IMG/VR virus record: IMGVR_UViG_3300043540_000272 | Location: 1 to 29,039 of that record | Source of the DNA: a virus | DNA length: 29,039 bases | Direction: 5' to 3' (one strand) | Part shown: piece by piece, positions 3,321-13,801 of the stretch | Layout of the letters: each line of letters opens with the position of its first letter | Numbering within the stretch: position 1 is the stretch's first letter | Notes under the pieces: generated by a model | The model's database searches: none | Seen by the model: only the letters and a program-made list of their open reading frames with translations | Told to the model about the DNA's origin: nothing | Position numbers and translations under genes: made by a program

Positions 3321-5420
3321 TTATTTATTATTAAGTAAAGATTGGTTTCCTCTCAACATGTTAATCATACTGTTATGAATATTTGACTGATGCTTTAAAA
3401 CTTCATTTTCAAGACGCAATTTATTATTGTTATGACTATTTATTATGTCCATCATTTTAGCCTTTAAATTCATTTCGGCTTCTTGCAATCCAATGTCTGC
3501 TTTATGTATTTCTGCTTGAGCTTTTGCTTGAGAAGCTTGTACTTCTGGGGACGGTGGAGGTGGAGGCATTTGTTGCACCGGGTCTCCCTTTTCGGTAGCA
3601 ATGACATTCGGTGGTACAACAAAATTCTTAAATCTATCGACTATTTGTGGAGTATTATCTAAATTCGTATTTGCTGCAATTAAATCAGCTATTATCGGGA
3701 ATACTTGTGGATTAAGTGAAGCCATCGCAATTAATTGATTATAAGCATCAAGCTTTTGCAATTCAAAACTTGCACCAATGCTTACCTCTACATCCACCGA
3801 CATTTGTTTCAATTGTTCTATGCGTGAATTATTTAATTGTTCTACCATTCGATTTTTTTCTTTATCATATCCTTCAATAATTCTATTTTCTTCGAAATAT
3901 GTTTCAGGGATTAAATCTAACAATATCTTATTGGTTTTATCAATACATATATTCAAATTATTTAAATAAGTAAATACTGAATTATTTCCTTGTAATGCGC
4001 GATTAGCTACCATTCTTCCCGACGTATCGTTTCCATCAGCCCCCTGATTAGCAGTATATCTTCCCAAAATGTTTTCAATCATTACCATTAATTCACTTGT
4101 GGCATTATTTAATGATGCAGGAAATTCAGGCGGTGGTAAAAAATCTGGTTTCTGTCCGGGAACTCTTACATCTGGATCATACATCATGAAAACTTGACTT
4201 TTTTCTGGGTTTCTCCATTGCTCTTTGTAATTAGAAATCATTTGAGCAGTAACTAAAAACTGGCCTTTATGTCTTGTCTTTAGCCATTCCGCTTTTTCGC
4301 TCATACAGAAGTTCATTAATCGTTGAGCATCTTTAGCAAATCTAATAAAACTTTTAGTTCGTTGTCGACCGCCAACAAAAGTACTATCTCCATCTAAAAA
4401 TATAATTGGTAAGTTTGTTCCAGGGAATGTTGTTTCTTCTAAAATATGTCCCTTTATAACCAAATAATGTTTAATTTCACATTTTTGGGTATATCTTTCA
4501 TCGACTACCTTTATTTCTTCACTTTCCGGGGGCGGTGGCATTTGTGATCCATTTTGAATAGCTTGAGAATATAAAGTAAACAATCTTAAATCTAATTCTT
4601 TTTTTGAATCCGTAAGTTCTTTTAATCGTTCTTTTAATTTGTCTTCTGGAACAGATTCGCCATTGCTTAATTTATATAATTTAGAACTTTTATAAATTTT
4701 ATGAAAATGTTCACAGATAGTAATACTATCTTTATCAAACCATTGAAAGTCTAAATTTTGTTGATTTAATGGATTTTGAATTGATTTTATTTGCTCAATA
4801 TCTCCATATTTGTTTCCATATTTTTCAAAGAACTCCTCCCAACTCATTTTGGTATAAATACCGCAAAACTCACCATCAAGCTTTCCTGGCTTAGTTGCCC
4901 TTGGATCAAAATAACATTTTTGCGTATCTGGAATTGCTATTATTGATAATACTTTATTAAATGATAAATCATTTTCGTAATCTCGACCAATCCGCCACGC
5001 TCCATATCCACCCATTAAAGCATTGCGAAAAGCAGTTTGAAAAGCCACGTCAGAATCAGAATTATAAGCAATTCCCCGTAATATTCCTTCATATAAATTT
5101 ATTCCGGCTTGATCGCTTGTAGCATTTTTAGCTATTACTTTTATTTGCGGAGAATTCTTTTGCTGCTCTCCAACTATATTTAAAATATAAGAATATAAAC
5201 AATTAAATGTTAGATATATTTTTTGTCTTAATTCATATTCGCCAATATCTCTTGCTTCCCATTGGTTTCCTAATGCAAAATTTACATCATCATTATAATT
5301 TTCAATATTATCTTGAAAGTAATTGAACCATGACTTAATAGAAAATTCTATTTTTTGAATAACATCGTCTTGCGTTGTTAAATCACTAATAAGAGTCTTT
5401 TGTATGTTTTTTTTATCCAT
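3321..5420 (-). CDS. Portal protein, P22 gp1-like
   Basis: A 699-aa protein, close to P22 portal (725 aa), between the large terminase and scaffold. The N-terminus carries SWFNYFQDNIENYNDD and FALGNQW, the usual opening of this family (helical stretch, then a tryptophan after a Gly). The central part has FDPRATKPGKLDGEFCG, a pattern common in P22-type portals. Pro-rich QMPPPPPSPE at about residue 617 separates the body from a long, charged, heptad-like C-terminal helix (about 630-690). That helix is what forms the coiled-coil barrel inside the P22 capsid. Twelve copies would form the DNA entry and exit ring and the docking site for terminase. It is followed by a 107-base spacer before scaffold, and begins one base after the large terminase stop. 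Confidence 0.88.
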   Translation of the reverse strand: MDKKNIQKTLISDLTTQDDVIQKIEFSIKSWFNYFQDNIENYNDDVNFALGNQWEARDIGEYELRQKIYLTFNCLYSYILNIVGEQQKNSPQIKVIAKNATSDQAGINLYEGILRGIAYNSDSDVAFQTAFRNALMGGYGAWRIGRDYENDLSFNKVLSIIAIPDTQKCYFDPRATKPGKLDGEFCGIYTKMSWEEFFEKYGNKYGDIEQIKSIQNPLNQQNLDFQWFDKDSITICEHFHKIYKSSKLYKLSNGESVPEDKLKERLKELTDSKKELDLRLFTLYSQAIQNGSQMPPPPESEEIKVVDERYTQKCEIKHYLVIKGHILEETTFPGTNLPIIFLDGDSTFVGGRQRTKSFIRFAKDAQRLMNFCMSEKAEWLKTRHKGQFLVTAQMISNYKEQWRNPEKSQVFMMYDPDVRVPGQKPDFLPPPEFPASLNNATSELMVMIENILGRYTANQGADGNDTSGRMVANRALQGNNSVFTYLNNLNICIDKTNKILLDLIPETYFEENRIIEGYDKEKNRMVEQLNNSRIEQLKQMSVDVEVSIGASFELQKLDAYNQLIAMASLNPQVFPIIADLIAANTNLDNTPQIVDRFKNFVVPPNVIATEKGDPVQQMPPPPPSPEVQASQAKAQAEIHKADIGLQEAEMNLKAKMMDIINSHNNNKLRLENEVLKHQSNIHNSMINMLRGNQSLLNNK

Positions 5421-5421
5421 G

Positions 5422-6969
5422 TTATACCCACATTGATGATGATTGGTTAAAATATTCTTTTTTATCTATTTTTGGATGATTATTTAAACAATTATAATAT
5501 AATGCCGCATATTGTAAACAATCCTGTATATCAGAGAATGGATGTGACTTAATTGGCACATCTTTATATTCTTCTTTGTTTAAGATGCGTAATCGTTCGT
5601 AAACGTACGAATTCATAAATCCTTTGCGTAATACAGGACATTCCGAACGTAGTAATACAAATGCCGGGTGACCCATACTCATTTTATTTAACCAAAAGTT
5701 TACTGCATCTATGCGTGGAACAATATCATTCGTTGATGCAGGCACAGTTGGTAATCCGGCACGATTTAGTTCTTCTATTGCGCTTGTAGTTGCTGTAATT
5801 TGACTTGCTTGCATGCCTGCTGGGTCACAAGTTGAATAAACTGGATTAGTTGGGAAATGCTTACGAATATATGGTAAAACAATTTGTATAAACTCAATTA
5901 TCCCCATTCTATCGGTTACAAATTCCTTTAGACATCGTAATTGGCCATCTACTAATTGAACAATTAAAGCAGCCGGAGTTAAACCAAAATCCCATGCAAC
6001 TACAATCGTTTCATTGTCTATTACTTTTAATGAATCTACTGCATGGTAATTATCATTATAACTTGGAAACACAACTTTGCCAGTTTTCAGTATTCCATAT
6101 TCGCCAAGACAATAAACTTTAATAAATTCTTTATCTGCTCCTGAAGCTATCTCTAAATAATAATTTGGATTTGATAAGTGTTCATAATTGTCGGCATTTT
6201 TATTGATTATGTAATTACCATCCTCATTCTTTAATAACCCAGGTGGTTGATGAAAAATTTCATGATCATCTGGTATATTTACTTCAAAAAGTTTATATAT
6301 CCAATGCTCAGTATCTGGGGGGTTTGTAGCACTAAAGACGGTCCCATGATATGGTTCTTTGCACAATATCTCTGGAGGATATCTGTTTATTCTTCCCTTA
6401 ATTACCATTAAGGCAACTTCTGGAAGCTCGCTAATTTCATCTAGCATTGCTGATGTTATTTCTAAAGATTTAAAACGCCCTATGTCTTTTGGTCTATCTA
6501 ACGCTAAAAATAATATCTCCATTTCAATAGGACCGTGTCCATCATTAAATTTATGTTCACATCTGAAAACATTGCTAGTAGTCTCCTTTACTTCTCCTAA
6601 TTCTGAAAACCAATCACACCATGTTTTGTAAGTAGTAGTTTTAAGTTGAGAATATGTATTGCGTATAATGGCTGCTCTATATCTACGAATGCCATCAATA
6701 CATCGCGGCATGCTACACGCTTGCCTGACTATTTCGGCACAAGACATTACGGTTTTACCACTTCCAAACGGCCCCATCACTATCTTGACATTGGCGTTGC
6801 TTTTATGAAATTTGATGCCTGTTTCGGAGGGAATATAACTTAATTGCTTATTATCCCCATAAATTTGAATTATACAATTATCTGCATCAATCTTAACATG
6901 TTGCTTATCTAGTTTTGTATAATTTAATACACGCTCTAAATCTTTTTTAATCGCGCTTAGTAAGTTCAT
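5422..6969 (-). CDS. Terminase large subunit (ATPase and nuclease)
   Basis: A 515-aa packaging motor. Walker A is GPFGSGKTV at about residue 67, a slightly unusual P-loop with Phe. Walker B is SAMLDEISEL at about 175, with a coupling-motif candidate VFSATNPPD at about 212. The C-terminal RNase H-fold nuclease shows its acidic residues in VVAWDFG (about 329), STCDPAG (about 383) and PFSDIQDCLQYAAL (about 480). It would cut the concatemer and drive DNA through the portal; headful use fits the circularly permuted contig. The gene overlaps the small terminase by 23 bases and ends one base before the portal start. Confidence 0.93.
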   Translation of the reverse strand: MNLLSAIKKDLERVLNYTKLDKQHVKIDADNCIIQIYGDNKQLSYIPSETGIKFHKSNANVKIVMGPFGSGKTVMSCAEIVRQACSMPRCIDGIRRYRAAIIRNTYSQLKTTTYKTWCDWFSELGEVKETTSNVFRCEHKFNDGHGPIEMEILFLALDRPKDIGRFKSLEITSAMLDEISELPEVALMVIKGRINRYPPEILCKEPYHGTVFSATNPPDTEHWIYKLFEVNIPDDHEIFHQPPGLLKNEDGNYIINKNADNYEHLSNPNYYLEIASGADKEFIKVYCLGEYGILKTGKVVFPSYNDNYHAVDSLKVIDNETIVVAWDFGLTPAALIVQLVDGQLRCLKEFVTDRMGIIEFIQIVLPYIRKHFPTNPVYSTCDPAGMQASQITATTSAIEELNRAGLPTVPASTNDIVPRIDAVNFWLNKMSMGHPAFVLLRSECPVLRKGFMNSYVYERLRILNKEEYKDVPIKSHPFSDIQDCLQYAALYYNCLNNHPKIDKKEYFNQSSSMWV

Positions 6970-8160: not shown

Positions 8161-8234
8161 TGTTTTTAATCATTGAAATACAAAAAAACGCTAAAACCCT
8201 TCGCGCGCGTGTATTTCACAATCATTTTGAGACA

Positions 8235-8338
8235 TTACTTACAAAAAATATAGCTAATATCTCACAATTTTGTGAGACATATCTCACAAAATTTGTAAGC
8301 AATATCTCACAAATTTATAAGCAATATCTCACAAAATA
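8235..8338. repeat. Iteron-like array, 22-bp period
   Basis: ATATCTCACAA occurs at 8257, 8279, 8302 and 8324, spaced 22, 23 and 22 bp. A degraded fifth unit starts at 8235 (8 of 11 matches). The repeats extend beyond the core: units three and four also share a TAAGCA tail. The first full unit includes a dyad CTCACAA-TT-TTGTGAG (8261-8276). Spacing close to two helical turns puts every copy on one DNA face, as in replication-origin iterons or cooperative repressor sites. It lies between divergent late and early transcription units, so it is either a regulator array or an origin. Confidence 0.8.
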
Positions 8339-8354
8339 GTTATTTTTTTACATC

Positions 8355-8398
8355 TTGTCAAATATTTTGTTTGACAAATAAAAAAGAACTGATAATAT
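8355..8398 (+). promoter_or_regulatory. Early rightward promoter with TGTCAA-N9-TTGACA operator
   Basis: TTGACA (8371-8376), a 16-base spacer and TAATAT (8393-8398, preceded by TGA, so extended) form a strong sigma70-type promoter. The -35 is one arm of a dyad, TTGTCAAA (8355-8362) with TTTGACAA (8370-8377). The core TGTCAA-N9-TTGACA recurs with identical spacing at 11042 and 11749, which suggests one regulator binds all three. Confidence 0.85.
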
Positions 8399-8401
8399 TT
8401 G

Positions 8402-8427
8402 CATATCAACAATAAAAGATTGATATG
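8402..8427 (+). promoter_or_regulatory. 8-bp dyad in the early leader
   Basis: CATATCAA (8402-8409) and TTGATATG (8420-8427) flank a 10-base loop around the predicted start of the early transcript. It could be an operator or an RNA stem at the 5' end of the message. There is no T run. Confidence 0.55.
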
Positions 8428-8466
8428 AAAAAAGAATGTTTTATTAACAAAATAAGGAGAAAATAT

Positions 8467-8763
8467 ATGATATCACTAAATCAATTAAAAAAGATTAATG
8501 CTTTGCGTGATCTGAGAAACACTATTGTTTCAAAAAAAATACGCGATAAAAAATTACAAGAAAAGATTATGATTTACACAAAAAAAATAGGGGAAGAAAA
8601 TTGTTTAAAATATCATAGATTACGAAATCATTTGTTGAGTGCTAGCTTAAAGACAAGAAACGAAATACGCTTATTACAAGCCAAATTAGAATTAGAGTTA
8701 TTAAGTGAGCCATGGGTTTACACCGATGCCAACATTTACAATTATTTAACAAGTTTGAAATAA
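8467..8763 (+). CDS. Basic helical early protein, unknown
   Basis: A 98-aa protein, the first gene of the rightward early unit. I start it at ATG 8467 because AAGGAG lies seven bases upstream; an earlier in-frame ATG at 8425 lies within the leader dyad and lacks a ribosome site. The sequence is Lys/Arg-rich and almost entirely helical, with leucine-rich stretches (RLLQAKLELELL) and the ending PWVYTDANIYNYL. A similar PW(I/V)(H/Y)T(N/D) piece occurs in the small protein at 11899. I do not recognise a family. Early position and small size suit a host-takeover or regulatory protein, which is inference. Confidence 0.65.
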   Translation: MISLNQLKKINALRDLRNTIVSKKIRDKKLQEKIMIYTKKIGEENCLKYHRLRNHLLSASLKTRNEIRLLQAKLELELLSEPWVYTDANIYNYLTSLK

Positions 8764-8779
8764 AAAAAAGAGGTAAAAA

Positions 8780-9129
8780 ATGAAAACTAAATATTTATTA
8801 TTAGGTGCGGTAATTTTGATGCCGCGTTGGGCGGTTACGTATCGCGCATTCTCTGGGATGATTCGGGAACGGATGAAGTGCGTGTTCAACCGCGCATGCA
8901 GGCGCAGGGCGGGGCCTTCCGGGCTTACTGCTTGAGGCGCACGTTGCCGATTCCACAAGGGCCGGAGGACCGGATATTTCATGTCTTGCACTTGGCGGCG
9001 CTCGCCTATTGCGGCGATTAATGGGCAGACCACGGATGGTTGCCGGGACTCCGATTGAAGTCTCCATGAACAAAAAAAGAAGAATATGCATTTAAAGTAA
9101 CTTATGAAAACAATATTAACATCGAATGA
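8780..9129 (+). pseudogene. Small secreted-type gene interrupted by a GC-rich patch
   Basis: An ATG at 8780 with AGAGGT just upstream begins MKTKYLLLGAVILM, a typical start of a signal peptide or lipoprotein in AT-rich codons. After codon 14 the base composition changes abruptly and the frame runs into a TGA at 8933-8935. Beyond the patch an AT-rich open stretch resumes and reads KKEEYAFKVTYENNINIE to a TGA at 9127-9129, overlapping the next gene's start at 9104. The simplest reading is one small exported protein whose middle has been replaced or split. Small phage lipoproteins often block superinfection, but nothing here proves that. That the two ends were one gene is inference. Confidence 0.45.
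8816..9068. other. GC-rich foreign patch
   Basis: About 250 bases of markedly GC-rich DNA (rich in CGCG, GGCGC, CCGG words) sit inside an AT-rich genome, with sharp edges after TAATTTTGAT on the left and before ACAAAAAAAG on the right. One plus frame reads as convincing protein from 8818 to a TAA at 9019-9021 (DAALGGYVSRILWDDS near the start, HVLHLAALAYCGD at the end), and an ATG overlaps that stop (TAATG) to start MGRPRMVAGTPIEV. That looks like the junction of two bacterial genes. No inverted repeats, target duplication or transposase are visible. It is either a captured fragment or a chimeric join in the assembly. Confidence 0.75.
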
Positions 9130-9349
9130 AATTTTAGAGTTAATTAAAGCTAAACAGAAAGAAGAAGACGAAAAAGAAAATAGTGATGATGACCCATATT
9201 TTTATTACACTAGAAATATAGAAAGCAAAAATATTTCAATTGTTTCCAATACTTCCGACGGTAATTTAGTTTCTATTATTGGTATTATTTTAGCAAATAA
9301 TTCTTTTGCCAAAGAATTTATAAAAATGAAGTTTTTGGACGACAAGTAA
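9104..9349 (+). CDS. Small acidic early protein, unknown
   Basis: An 81-aa protein, first half charged and helical (LELIKAKQKEEDEKENSDDD), second half with a short hydrophobic strand-helix (LVSIIGIILANNSFAKEF). No family is recognised. Its ATG lies within the 3' remnant of the interrupted gene, so it was probably translationally coupled to that gene before the GC-rich patch appeared. The ribosome site is weak (AAAGTAA). It ends the rightward early unit, 150 bases before the terminator at 9506. Confidence 0.55.
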   Translation: MKTILTSNEILELIKAKQKEEDEKENSDDDPYFYYTRNIESKNISIVSNTSDGNLVSIIGIILANNSFAKEFIKMKFLDDK

Positions 9350-9583: not shown

Positions 9584-10054
9584 TTAAGGTATTTCTGTTT
9601 CATTAACTCCAGAGTTTCGCAATTGCACATGCATAGTTGCCAATTGCTCATCAATTGCCCGGGAAAAAGTATACATCGTTTTTGCGTTCAAATCTTGTCT
9701 TTTTATTAGCTTTAATCGTTTTTCGGCTAAATCATGCATTTGGTTTTTAATAACTTCAACATCACTTGCCGTTAGATTATTGCATAATTTTTCCTCTGAA
9801 TGCTGGGGGATAAATTTTATAAATTCAGCGATAGTTGGAAAAAAATTTAATTCAGAACGGACTTTCTGGACAGCGCTTTTGAATTGATAATCCGAAAAAT
9901 GAGATGTTGCTTGGTCCCATTCTTTGGCAAGCCTATTAACATGATCATCTGTTTTACATTCTGCTGCCAGTTTATGAGACCAAAGCATTGTAGCTTGTCG
10001 AATAAAATAATGGCATCGTTTAAGAGTTGAAGTATGCATTGTATTCCTCTTCAT
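9584..10054 (-). CDS. Probable replicative helicase loader
   Basis: A 156-aa protein overlapping the end of the replisome organizer by 35 bases, the place where phages often encode the helicase loader (lambda P, G39P types). It begins with a helical segment (FIRQATMLWSHKLAAEC). Residues about 55-82 read FSDYQFKSAVQKVRSEL then FFPTIAEFIKFIP. That last piece is a hallmark shared by loader families, where a short helix with (F/W)PP(T/S)IxEF ends the N-terminal domain. The C-terminal half is helical and charged. It would recruit a host DnaB-type helicase to origin-bound organizer. No helicase gene is seen in the genome, which fits use of the host helicase. The family is inferred from the motif and context. 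Confidence 0.6.
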   Translation of the reverse strand: MKRNTMHTSTLKRCHYFIRQATMLWSHKLAAECKTDDHVNRLAKEWDQATSHFSDYQFKSAVQKVRSELNFFPTIAEFIKFIPQHSEEKLCNNLTASDVEVIKNQMHDLAEKRLKLIKRQDLNAKTMYTFSRAIDEQLATMHVQLRNSGVNETEIP

Positions 10055-10829
10055 CTTGTGGGGTAAATCCTAATTTCTCATCTAGTGTTTGTTTTTGAGA
10101 AAGCCTAATAAACAATTCGATATGGTGACTATCACGCAATATAAGTTCTATCTGATCGTAAATCATATTGTTTTTATTTTTACCCATATGGAAATCGCTT
10201 TTTTTACAACCATCGATAGCTTTTTTTAGATCTTCTGGAGAGTAATTACTCAATGCCAACTTGATTAATCGTTTGCGTTTATTATCTAGCTTGGCTTGCT
10301 GGTGATTATGTACAGATTTCCAGTACTCAAAAATATCAAAAACCAAAGAACTTTTTCTTTGGTTATTTTCTTTTTTATATTTCTCTTTCTCTCTCTCTCT
10401 CTCTTTCTCTGTGTTACATGTTGTTACAGCAGTGTTACATTGTAACATTTTTCTCTCTTTTTCCTTGTTTTCTCGATGCCTTCTAACCCTTTCTGCACTT
10501 CGCGTTTCACTACCTATACATTCCAAAACGTATGGTAGCACGTATTCATCGCCGTTTACTTCTAATAACCCTTTGGAAAATAAGTAATTTAATGTTATTT
10601 CTATATTTTCTGGTGTTTCGTCTATTATAAGGGATAATTCCTTAGGAAGAGTTTCGTCAACATGTTCAAAATAAAATTTTCCTTCGGTTTGTAGTGTCAA
10701 AAGTTGTAACTTTAAATAAATTATTGTAAACGTTTCTCCGCCTGCTATTGTCCTAATTTTTTTCATTTCTTTTGATTTAAAAAAATCTTCTTTTAATCTA
10801 AGCCAATAAAATCTTTTATTTTCAGTCAT
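10020..10829 (-). CDS. Replisome organizer (phage_rep_org_N-type initiator)
   Basis: A 269-aa initiator. Residues 6-92 carry a clear phage replisome organizer N-terminal pattern: FYWLRLKEDFFKSKEMKKIR, AGGETFTIIYLKLQLL, GKFYF, then LNYLFSKGLLE, a winged-helix DNA-binding fold. Residues about 112-160 are a low-complexity Lys/Glu/Arg linker. The C-terminal 100 residues are a helical domain with FDIFEYWKSVHN and LKKAIDGCKKSDFHMGKNK, typical of replication proteins that recruit the loader. The linker DNA holds clustered TGTTACA repeats and a (CT)8 tract, so the origin may lie inside the gene, as in lambda O. The leader contains a strong terminator hairpin. This domain is best known from Firmicutes phages; here it is paired with a Gram-negative lysis set. 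Confidence 0.85.
   Translation of the reverse strand: MTENKRFYWLRLKEDFFKSKEMKKIRTIAGGETFTIIYLKLQLLTLQTEGKFYFEHVDETLPKELSLIIDETPENIEITLNYLFSKGLLEVNGDEYVLPYVLECIGSETRSAERVRRHRENKEKERKMLQCNTAVTTCNTEKEREREKEKYKKENNQRKSSLVFDIFEYWKSVHNHQQAKLDNKRKRLIKLALSNYSPEDLKKAIDGCKKSDFHMGKNKNNMIYDQIELILRDSHHIELFIRLSQKQTLDEKLGFTPQDEEEYNAYFNS
10388..10403. repeat. (TC)8 microsatellite in the organizer gene
   Basis: Eight TC units (GA on the coding strand), embedded in a longer polypyrimidine tract of about 30 bases. It encodes the EREREKEK part of the linker. The tract is next to the TGTTACA cluster. Confidence 0.85.
10412..10447. repeat. TGTTACA cluster, candidate replication origin
   Basis: TGTTACA occurs at 10412, 10422 and 10433, and its reverse complement TGTAACA at 10441-10447. 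The spacing is 10, 11 and 8 bp, with the last pair forming a 15-bp dyad. The cluster encodes repeated CNT residues in the linker of the replisome organizer. Phage origins of the lambda O type lie exactly there, between the DNA-binding and protein-interaction domains. Confidence 0.6.
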
Positions 10830-10847: not shown

Positions 10848-10918
10848 AAAAAAAAGCCCTTAACTGGCCGGGCTTAGCGATGGGAAATGAAAAACCCAGC
10901 CCGCGCCAGTTAAAGGCT
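10848..10918 (-). terminator. Leader terminator (attenuator) of the replication operon
   Basis: On the minus strand a 14-bp stem (10918-10905 with 10868-10855, one mismatch) is extended by a 6-bp GC stem (10903-10898 with 10874-10869) after a one-base bulge. Eight T residues follow (10855-10848). This is a textbook intrinsic terminator, yet it ends only about 20 bases before the organizer ATG at 10829 and just upstream of its GAGGAG ribosome site. Transcripts from the promoter at 11020-11047 must pass it, so expression is probably conditional. Confidence 0.8.
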
Positions 10919-11019
10919 CTTATTTCATTTTTTTTAGCTCGCTAAAGCTAAAGAGGGCCGCTGATTTTGGTAACATGACATAGGATTTATAAACCAATCA
11001 ATCTTCACGGCACATAAAT

Positions 11020-11084
11020 ATAGTAACAAAACCTTAAACAATGTCAAATATTTTTATTGACAACAAATATTATTATAATATTAT
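11020..11084. promoter_or_regulatory. Divergent promoter pair with TGTCAA-N9-TTGACA operator
   Basis: The dyad TGTCAA (11042-11047) N9 TTGACA (11057-11062) supplies a perfect -35 in each direction. Rightwards, a 16-base spacer leads to TATTAT (11079-11084), serving SSB. Leftwards, a 16-base spacer leads to TACTAT (minus strand, 11025-11020), serving the replication operon. One bound regulator would control both. Confidence 0.82.
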
Positions 11085-12458: not shown

Positions 12459-12692
12459 ATGATAACGAAGACACAAAAAAATAAAAAACCAAAAAAAGAT
12501 AAAAACATAGAAAAAATACGAGAATATCAACATAAGAAATATAACGAATATAAAACACTTGAGGCCAACGGATATGAGCTTGAAAAAACGAAAAAACTTT
12601 ATTCTATGTTTTTTAATCTAATCAAAGGAATAAAGAAAGCTCAAGGACATGATTTGTATGAAATGAATAAATGTTATGGAATTAAAATATGA
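12459..12692 (+). CDS. Lys-rich early protein, unknown
   Basis: A 77-aa very basic protein. The N-terminus is a lysine run (KTQKNKKPKKDKNIEKI), followed by helices around YQHKKYNEYKTLEANGYELEKTKK. A good AGGAG precedes the ATG. Its TGA overlaps the start of the recombination ATPase (ATGA), so the two are translationally coupled. It may be a nucleic-acid-binding partner of that enzyme. No family is recognised. Confidence 0.6.
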   Translation: MITKTQKNKKPKKDKNIEKIREYQHKKYNEYKTLEANGYELEKTKKLYSMFFNLIKGIKKAQGHDLYEMNKCYGIKI

Positions 12693-13801
12693 ATAATAAC
12701 AATTTTTTTACAAAACTTGAAAACACAAAACCATTTTTAAAAATGGCCCTAGAAGGATTTGCAGGCAGTGGAAAAACCTTCACTGCCGCGCAAATTGCAA
12801 TTGGTCTACACAAATACATCAATTCCACCCTTCCGATCGTTTGGTACGACACAGAGCGTGCGTTAAAAGCTTTGAAACCATATTTTGACAAAGTTAGTAT
12901 AGAGATTTTAACGCGGGAAAGCCGATCATTGGCTGATCTTAATAGAACGATTGATCTATGTTGTCAAGGGGCCTCCCAAATATTAGTAATAGATTCTATT
13001 ACTCACGTTTGGGAAGCATTTATTGAGGCATATAAAGCAGAAAAAAGAAGGTCTTTTATTCAATTTCAAGATTGGGGTGTAATTAAACCAAAATGGAAAA
13101 AAGAATTTTCAGATCGTATTGTGATGTCAAATTTACACATAATATTTACTGGGCGTGCTGGTTATGAATATGAAAACGAAATAAATGAAACAACTGGAAA
13201 AATGGAATTAATAAAAAGCGGGATAAAAATGAAAGTAGAAAATGAAACGGAATATGAACCTGATATAGTTGTTTTGCTGACAAAATCAAAAGAATTAAAA
13301 GGAAATAAATTACAAATTTTTAGAACAGCAGAAATACTAAAGGATCGGACAAATACAATTGATAGTAAAACATTTCCAAATCCTAAATTTAATGATTTCT
13401 TTCCAGCAATAGAAATTCTTTTAAATGGTTGCGCAAGAGAATCTATTATAGAAGAAAATAAAGATGAATTTGCGACTTTTGAAGAAAATCATCACAAAAG
13501 CAAGCAGCAACGAGAAATTTTGTTAGAAGAAATAAAAGGTATTTTTAATGAATTGTTTCCCGGAAAGTCAAGTAATTTTGTTTCAATTAAAACAGAAGTT
13601 TCATACGAAATATTTAGAACAAGAAGTTGGACAGCAATTGAAAACATGTCTTTAAATGAACTGGAAATGGGATTTTCAAGATTATCTTTATCCAAACCAT
13701 TAATTGAAAAATATATGCAATCTTGTGCCAGCGAAGAATTAGAGTTTGATAATTCTAAAATTATTAATATTTTAAAAGAATCTGTAACAAAAATAAACTA
13801 A
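12689..13801 (+). CDS. Sak4-like RecA-family recombination ATPase
   Basis: A 370-aa ATPase. Walker A is EGFAGSGKTFTAAQIA at about residue 22, followed by VWYDTERALKALKPYF (about 50-65), a pattern typical of phage AAA_24/Sak4 proteins. Walker B is ILVIDSITHVWEAF at about 98. A further conserved piece is HIIFTGRAGYEYE at about 150. The C-terminal 100 residues are helical and divergent, and longer than the shortest Sak4 proteins. Members are RecA-core single-strand annealing or exchange proteins that work with a phage SSB, which is encoded 1.1 kb upstream in the same direction. It is coupled to the Lys-rich gene upstream and followed nine bases later by csrA. Confidence 0.8.
   Translation: MNNNNFFTKLENTKPFLKMALEGFAGSGKTFTAAQIAIGLHKYINSTLPIVWYDTERALKALKPYFDKVSIEILTRESRSLADLNRTIDLCCQGASQILVIDSITHVWEAFIEAYKAEKRRSFIQFQDWGVIKPKWKKEFSDRIVMSNLHIIFTGRAGYEYENEINETTGKMELIKSGIKMKVENETEYEPDIVVLLTKSKELKGNKLQIFRTAEILKDRTNTIDSKTFPNPKFNDFFPAIEILLNGCARESIIEENKDEFATFEENHHKSKQQREILLEEIKGIFNELFPGKSSNFVSIKTEVSYEIFRTRSWTAIENMSLNELEMGFSRLSLSKPLIEKYMQSCASEELEFDNSKIINILKESVTKIN

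What the first reader, a model, noticed from the sequence alone, without database searches (positions are those of the whole stretch)
8780..9129. GC-rich patch of about 250 bp splitting a small secreted-protein gene
Composition flips sharply at about 8816 and 9068. The patch reads like the end of one bacterial gene coupled (TAATG) to the start of another, and the flanks look like the start (MKTKYLLLGAVILM) and end (KKEEYAFKVTYE) of a native small protein. If real, it is a very recent non-transposon capture from a GC-rich genome. If not, it is a chimera artefact. Either answer matters for the annotation.
Basis: partly seen in the sequence, partly recalled or inferred. Interest (0 to 1): 0.65.

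Follow-up and report, generated by a model that had tools for sequence, protein, structure and literature searches.

The report
Scrambled defence-gene scrap in a phage
A 253-base GC-rich patch in an AT-rich phage contig is a dead mosaic of pieces from another bacterium's two-gene anti-phage defence operon; it is either a recently captured, deletion-riddled scrap or a sequencing/assembly chimera, and read data are needed to decide.

Summary
The composition break is real: 8816-9068 is 60% GC, against 22-24% in the 100 bp on either side, and is by far the strongest GC segment of the window. The window is an IMG/VR virus record, an AT-rich podovirus-like phage. The patch is not the end of one gene coupled to the start of another. 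It is a mosaic of a defence operon: 8816-8872 matches the HamA-like gene PDC-M23A and 8872-9031 the HamB-like helicase gene PDC-M23B of contig L002 (86% and 83% DNA identity), with about 0.9 kb missing between them. The 'TAATG' is a nonsense codon inside the still-homologous helicase frame. The last 37 bp may be a further helicase piece (weak). No nuclease or helicase motif survives, so it is dead as a defence gene. In the closest phage relative found, the same slot between replication genes and terminase carries unrelated cargo, including a transposase, which favours a real landing site. No relative shows an intact small gene, and read depth cannot be checked, so a chimera is not excluded. 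Interest is modest.

The parts
8780..8815 (+). Phage-side left flank: ribosome-binding-like AGAGGT just upstream, ATG and 12 codons of a native-looking ORF (MKTKYLLLGAVI...) that now runs out of frame into the patch
   Evidence: Sequence; 24% GC to the left of 8816; no relative found by tblastn in phage-relative loci
8816..8872 (+). Foreign piece 1: PDC-M23A (HamA-like) codons for DAALGGYVSRILWDDSGT, about residues 30-47 of the 270-aa L002 protein
   Evidence: blastn 49/57 (86%) to L002 4026-4082, 6 of 8 differences at third codon positions; L002 protein is PDC-M23A at 4.6e-103
8862..8872 (+). Internal junction 1, TTCGGGAACGG: joins piece 1 to piece 2 in frame; probable short direct repeat shared by the donor's two genes (inferred)
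   Evidence: L002 HamA side reads GCCGGTACGG, L002 HamB side reads TTCGGGC-GATGAAG; the patch reads TTCGGGAACGGATGAAG
8872..9031 (+). Foreign piece 2: PDC-M23B (HamB-like helicase) N-terminal codons, residues about 88-140, before the DEAD motor domain
   Evidence: blastn 133/160 (83%) to L002 5001-5160; PDC-M23B profile E=5.9e-7 from the patch alone; 57-60% aa identity to L003 and L008
9019..9021 (+).
   Evidence: Codon comparison
9032..9068 (+). Foreign piece 3, GC-rich, origin uncertain; possibly PDC-M23B around residues 284-294 (RMVAG motif), out of frame
   Evidence: 13/14 match to L002 5589-5602; such a match is found for about 3% of random GC-rich 37-mers
9069..9129 (+). Phage-side right flank: open frame without start (KKEEYAFKVTYENNINIE*) overlapping the start of the next ORF
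   Evidence: Sequence; 22% GC; no relative in viral contigs by degenerate pattern
8425..9349 (+). Accessory slot of the phage, opposite in strand to the terminase and replication genes on either side; holds ORFs 8425-8763 and 9104-9349 and the patch
   Evidence: Same gene order in relative L019, whose slot carries an ankyrin gene, a DDE transposase and a small ORF

Best explanation
The patch is foreign bacterial DNA, a dead remnant of a Hachiman-like two-gene anti-phage operon (PDC-M23A nuclease-like gene plus PDC-M23B helicase). It sits in the accessory-gene slot of this AT-rich phage. Most likely it came in by illegitimate recombination at short matches from a GC-rich genome, plausibly another phage or prophage. 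Deletions between short repeats, before or after arrival, then cut a roughly 4-kb operon to about 250 bp. A phage with a small capsid would be under pressure to delete such cargo. Shown: the identity of pieces 1 and 2, their order, the missing 0.9 kb, the nonsense codon, and different cargo in the same slot of one relative. Inferred: the microhomology mechanism, the order of events, the identity of piece 3, and that the junctions exist in the phage rather than only in the assembly.
For: Origin: L002, 86% and 83% DNA identity, PDC-M23A and PDC-M23B profiles; Planctomicrobium MAG relative L008. Collinear pieces from one operon suggest deletions, not random joining. Differences from L002 lie mostly at third codon positions (6 of 8 and 17 of 27), so decay is recent relative to that divergence. 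Retained 60% GC also argues for youth. The same slot holds unrelated cargo, including a transposase and an ankyrin gene, in the closest relative found, L019. The donor family rides on phage-like elements: in L002 and L003 the operon follows phage structural genes.
Against: The window is a single metagenomic virus contig without reads. No second contig shows the fused HamA-HamB junction. No empty-site relative was found. The 253-bp size is close to one short library fragment. Phage and donor differ widely in GC content, which makes a real meeting less expected, though not impossible.
Confidence: 0.55

Rival explanations
1. Artefact: the foreign scrap was joined to phage DNA only in the laboratory or in the assembly (library ligation chimera, template switching in amplification, or a wrong join across a coverage gap). 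The donor operon, perhaps already decayed, exists in a different organism of the same sample.
For: Single contig, virus record from a metagenome collection; abrupt edges at both sides; no second copy of the junction; no relative of the flanks or of the patch in this setting. Amplification chimeras commonly join at 2-21 nt matches (PMC1855051), as the junctions here might.
Against: It needs two phage junctions plus at least one internal deletion junction within 253 bp, returning to the same phage. In the MDA study more than 85% of chimeras were inversions (PMC1855051), whereas the two assigned pieces here keep order and strand. The patch falls in a slot that holds other cargo in a relative.
Confidence: 0.37
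2. Two or more coupled bacterial genes captured intact, as the first reader suggested (end of one gene, TAATG, start of another).
For: An ATG does follow the TAA at 9019-9021, and the downstream frame is open for 24 codons.
Against: The helicase homology runs through the TAA in the original frame (QWAD in L002, *WAD here). The short downstream frame has no Pfam family.
Confidence: 0.02
3. The scrap is retained because it does something for the phage, for example a small RNA or short peptide that interferes with the matching defence system of a host or of a rival prophage.
For: It derives from an anti-phage system, sits in the accessory block in sense direction behind a promoter-like region, and is little decayed in sequence.
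Against: The phage start codon reads it out of frame, the defence frame has no good start and a stop, the conserved motifs are absent, and the phage and donor differ strongly in base composition. No second phage shows it. The promoter-like site count in the region is no more than chance.
Confidence: 0.03

Closest known systems
PDC-M23 (PADLOC phage defence candidate, proteins PDC-M23A and PDC-M23B)
   Same: Both assigned pieces are recognisable fragments of its two genes, in operon order; the helicase piece alone hits the PDC-M23B profile
   Different: Only about 18 and 53 codons survive, fused, with a stop codon; no functional unit remains
Hachiman (HamA DUF1837 nuclease and HamB helicase; PMC12278908)
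   Same: The donor's second protein matches HamB profiles (best 5.4e-56). The donor's first protein shows a GEVKTS stretch that fits the D-ExK motif described for HamA
   Different: The donor's first protein has no Pfam hit, so no DUF1837 match, and hits PDC-M23A rather than HamA profiles; the patch lacks the nuclease and motor regions
Accessory 'moron' slots of tailed phages
   Same: Opposite-strand, variable cargo between replication and packaging genes, as in L019
   Different: Morons are normally intact expressed genes; this is a non-coding scrap
Amplification or assembly chimeras (for example MDA chimeras, PMC1855051)
   Same: Abrupt joins, possibly at short matches, between unrelated templates
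   Different: The two assigned pieces keep the order and strand of one operon; MDA chimeras are mostly inversions

Membership tests
PDC-M23 / Hachiman-like defence operon (functional member) | HamA-like gene with nuclease motif | tested here: not met
   Only about residues 30-47 of the HamA-like protein are present; the GEVKTS stretch of L002 is absent
PDC-M23 / Hachiman-like defence operon (functional member) | HamB-like helicase with DEAD/SF2 motor domain | tested here: not met
   Only residues about 88-140 are present; the DEAD domain of L002 lies at residues 334-475
PDC-M23 / Hachiman-like defence operon (remnant) | Sequence descent from the two genes, in operon order | tested here: met
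   86% and 83% DNA identity to L002, same strand and order; PDC-M23B profile E=5.9e-7
Transposon insertion | Transposase, terminal inverted repeats or target-site duplication | tested here: not met
   No inverted repeat of 14 bp or more brackets the patch; no transposase homology in it
Phage accessory (moron) slot | Variable cargo at a fixed place among conserved phage genes | tested here: met
   L019 has replisome organizer, small gene, opposite-strand cargo, terS-like gene, terL in the same order with unrelated cargo; one clear case
Assembly or library chimera | Lack of spanning reads or a depth step at the edges | not testable with these tools
   Only the contig is held

The most novel reading that the evidence does not exclude
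The phage keeps a recombined scrap of an anti-phage defence operon because its transcript or a short product blocks that defence system, for example as antisense or decoy RNA or as a dominant-negative fragment.
Probability: 0.03. Interest if true: 0.7.

Novelty: new member of a known kind. Interest (0 to 1): 0.27.

Why it matters
For annotation: the ORFs called in or across 8746-9091 should not be treated as genes, and the contig should be flagged at 8816-9068 until reads are checked. If real, it catches a phage soon after an illegitimate capture of defence DNA from a distant genome and shows how fast such cargo is whittled down. It also points to PDC-M23 operons riding on phage-like elements (L002, L003).

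Tried and rejected
Patch DNA against phage and plasmid records: no match; patch protein against both: no match. Patch elsewhere in the same record: no second copy. DNA scan of 392 Planctomycetota genomes for a closer donor: only the known weak relative. Degenerate pattern for the HamA-HamB fusion in viral contigs: none. Relatives of the flanking ORFs and of the C-terminal flank peptide: none. The match of L019 to window 8760-8802 is A/T low complexity and was discarded. Rfam and tRNA scans: nothing. Two long antisense ORFs over the patch (8746-9033 and 8801-9091, minus strand) were rejected as composition effects, since homology is on the plus strand. PDC-M23 is not named in the open literature searched.

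Full report
What the window is. The window is a whole record of the IMG/VR collection, 29,039 bases, a virus record. Its genes are those of an AT-rich podovirus-like phage: portal 3321-5420 and major head protein 1098-2336 (PHROG hits), terminase large subunit 5422-6969 (relatives), a replisome organizer 10020-10829 and a Sak4-like protein 12689-13801. Whole-window GC is about 32%.

Observation. The patch 8816-9068 is 60% GC and its flanks are 24% and 22%. With a simple GC log-odds score it reaches 44.5; the next segment of the window reaches 14.3, and the maximum over 100 simulated sequences is 16.9. The feature is not chance.

What the patch is. A search with the patch peptide returned two viral contigs, L002 and L003, and one bacterial contig, L008, from a Planctomicrobium MAG. 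In L002, 8816-8872 aligns to 4026-4082 (49 of 57) and 8872-9031 aligns to 5001-5160 (133 of 160), both on the same strand. L002 4026 lies in a 270-aa gene that is PDC-M23A (4.6e-103). L002 5001 lies in the next gene, 1088 aa, which is PDC-M23B and also matches HamB helicase profiles (5.4e-56). Pfam sees a DEAD helicase domain at residues 334-475 of the latter and nothing in the former. The patch therefore holds about 18 codons of the first gene and 53 codons of the second, in operon order, with about 0.9 kb absent between them. The two are fused in the same reading frame.

The 'coupled genes' are an illusion. TAA at 9019-9021 corresponds to CAA in L002, and the reading GD*WAD against GDQWAD continues beyond it. 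It is a nonsense codon inside a helicase fragment, not a gene boundary.

Third piece. The last 37 bp are also GC-rich. They match L002 5589-5602 at 13 of 14 bases, and their peptide RMVAGT resembles RMVAGS of the helicase. A match as good is found for about 3% of random GC-rich 37-mers, so this is a lead only. If right, a second deletion of about 430 bp, this time out of frame, lies at 9031/9032.

Mechanism of the joins. At the first internal junction the patch reads TTCGGGAACGGATGAAG. L002 reads GCCGGTACGG on the first-gene side and TTCGGGC-GATGAAG on the second-gene side. A donor with Ser-Gly-Thr in both places could carry an 11-bp direct repeat there, and a deletion between such repeats would give exactly this in-frame fusion. 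This is an inference, because the exact donor was not found. Differences from L002 fall mostly on third codon positions (6 of 8 and 17 of 27), so most of the divergence arose while the genes were still under selection; the stop and the deletions are probably later.

Setting in the phage. The closest relative found, L019 (terminase 49%, portal 46%, head protein 57% identity), has the same order: replisome organizer, a small gene, a block on the opposite strand, a terminase-small-subunit-like gene, terminase large subunit. Its block holds an ankyrin gene, a DDE transposase and a small ORF. The window's block at this place is 8425-9349 and includes the patch. So the patch lies in a slot where this lineage carries cargo. 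This is one clear comparison, not a survey. The closest donor relatives are also on phage-like elements: in L002 and L003 the defence genes lie downstream of major-tail and tape-measure genes.

Native small gene. The left flank has a good ribosome-binding-like sequence and start; the right flank is an open frame without a start. No relative of either was found. If exactly 8816-9068 were an insertion, the gene would have only about 30 codons, so either the native gene is that small or part of it was replaced.

Real or artefact. For real: two assigned pieces of one operon in order and on one strand, which random chimeras do not favour; in the MDA study more than 85% of chimeras were inversions (PMC1855051). 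Also for real: location in a variable slot. For artefact: a single contig, no second example, a length near one library fragment, and no reads to inspect. I put a real insertion at about 0.6 (0.55 for the full explanation, 0.03 for a selected function, 0.02 for two intact genes) and a chimera at 0.37.

Function. Neither the HamA-like GEVKTS motif nor the helicase motor domain is present, the phage start codon reads the patch out of frame, and the defence frame carries a stop. As a defence gene it is dead. A retained regulatory role is not excluded but has no positive evidence.

Noticed in passing
window 8356-8377 and 11042-11063: A 22-bp near-palindrome TGTCAAATATTTTNNTTGACAA is shared (91%) by two divergent intergenic regions and supplies TTGACA boxes on both strands: probable shared operator or early promoters of the phage.
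   Followed up: no
window 8225-8340: Cluster of imperfect tandem and inverted TCTCACAA repeats just upstream of the slot's promoter-like region; looks like repressor binding sites.
   Followed up: no
L002 (contig IMGVR_UViG_3300022554_000206) and L003 (IMGVR_UViG_3300036766_001824): Two viral contigs carry PDC-M23AB downstream of phage tail genes (L002 next to a type I restriction-modification pair), so this candidate defence system seems to ride on prophages.
   Followed up: partly
L019 3986-6440: The phage relative carries an ankyrin-repeat gene and a DDE transposase in the slot, and a second ankyrin gene at 1092-1715; this might hint at a host living inside eukaryotic cells.
   Followed up: partly
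window 10848-10925: GC-rich inverted repeat (arms 10848-10868 and 10905-10925, 86% complementary) in the intergenic region upstream of the replisome organizer; a terminator or replication element.
   Followed up: no
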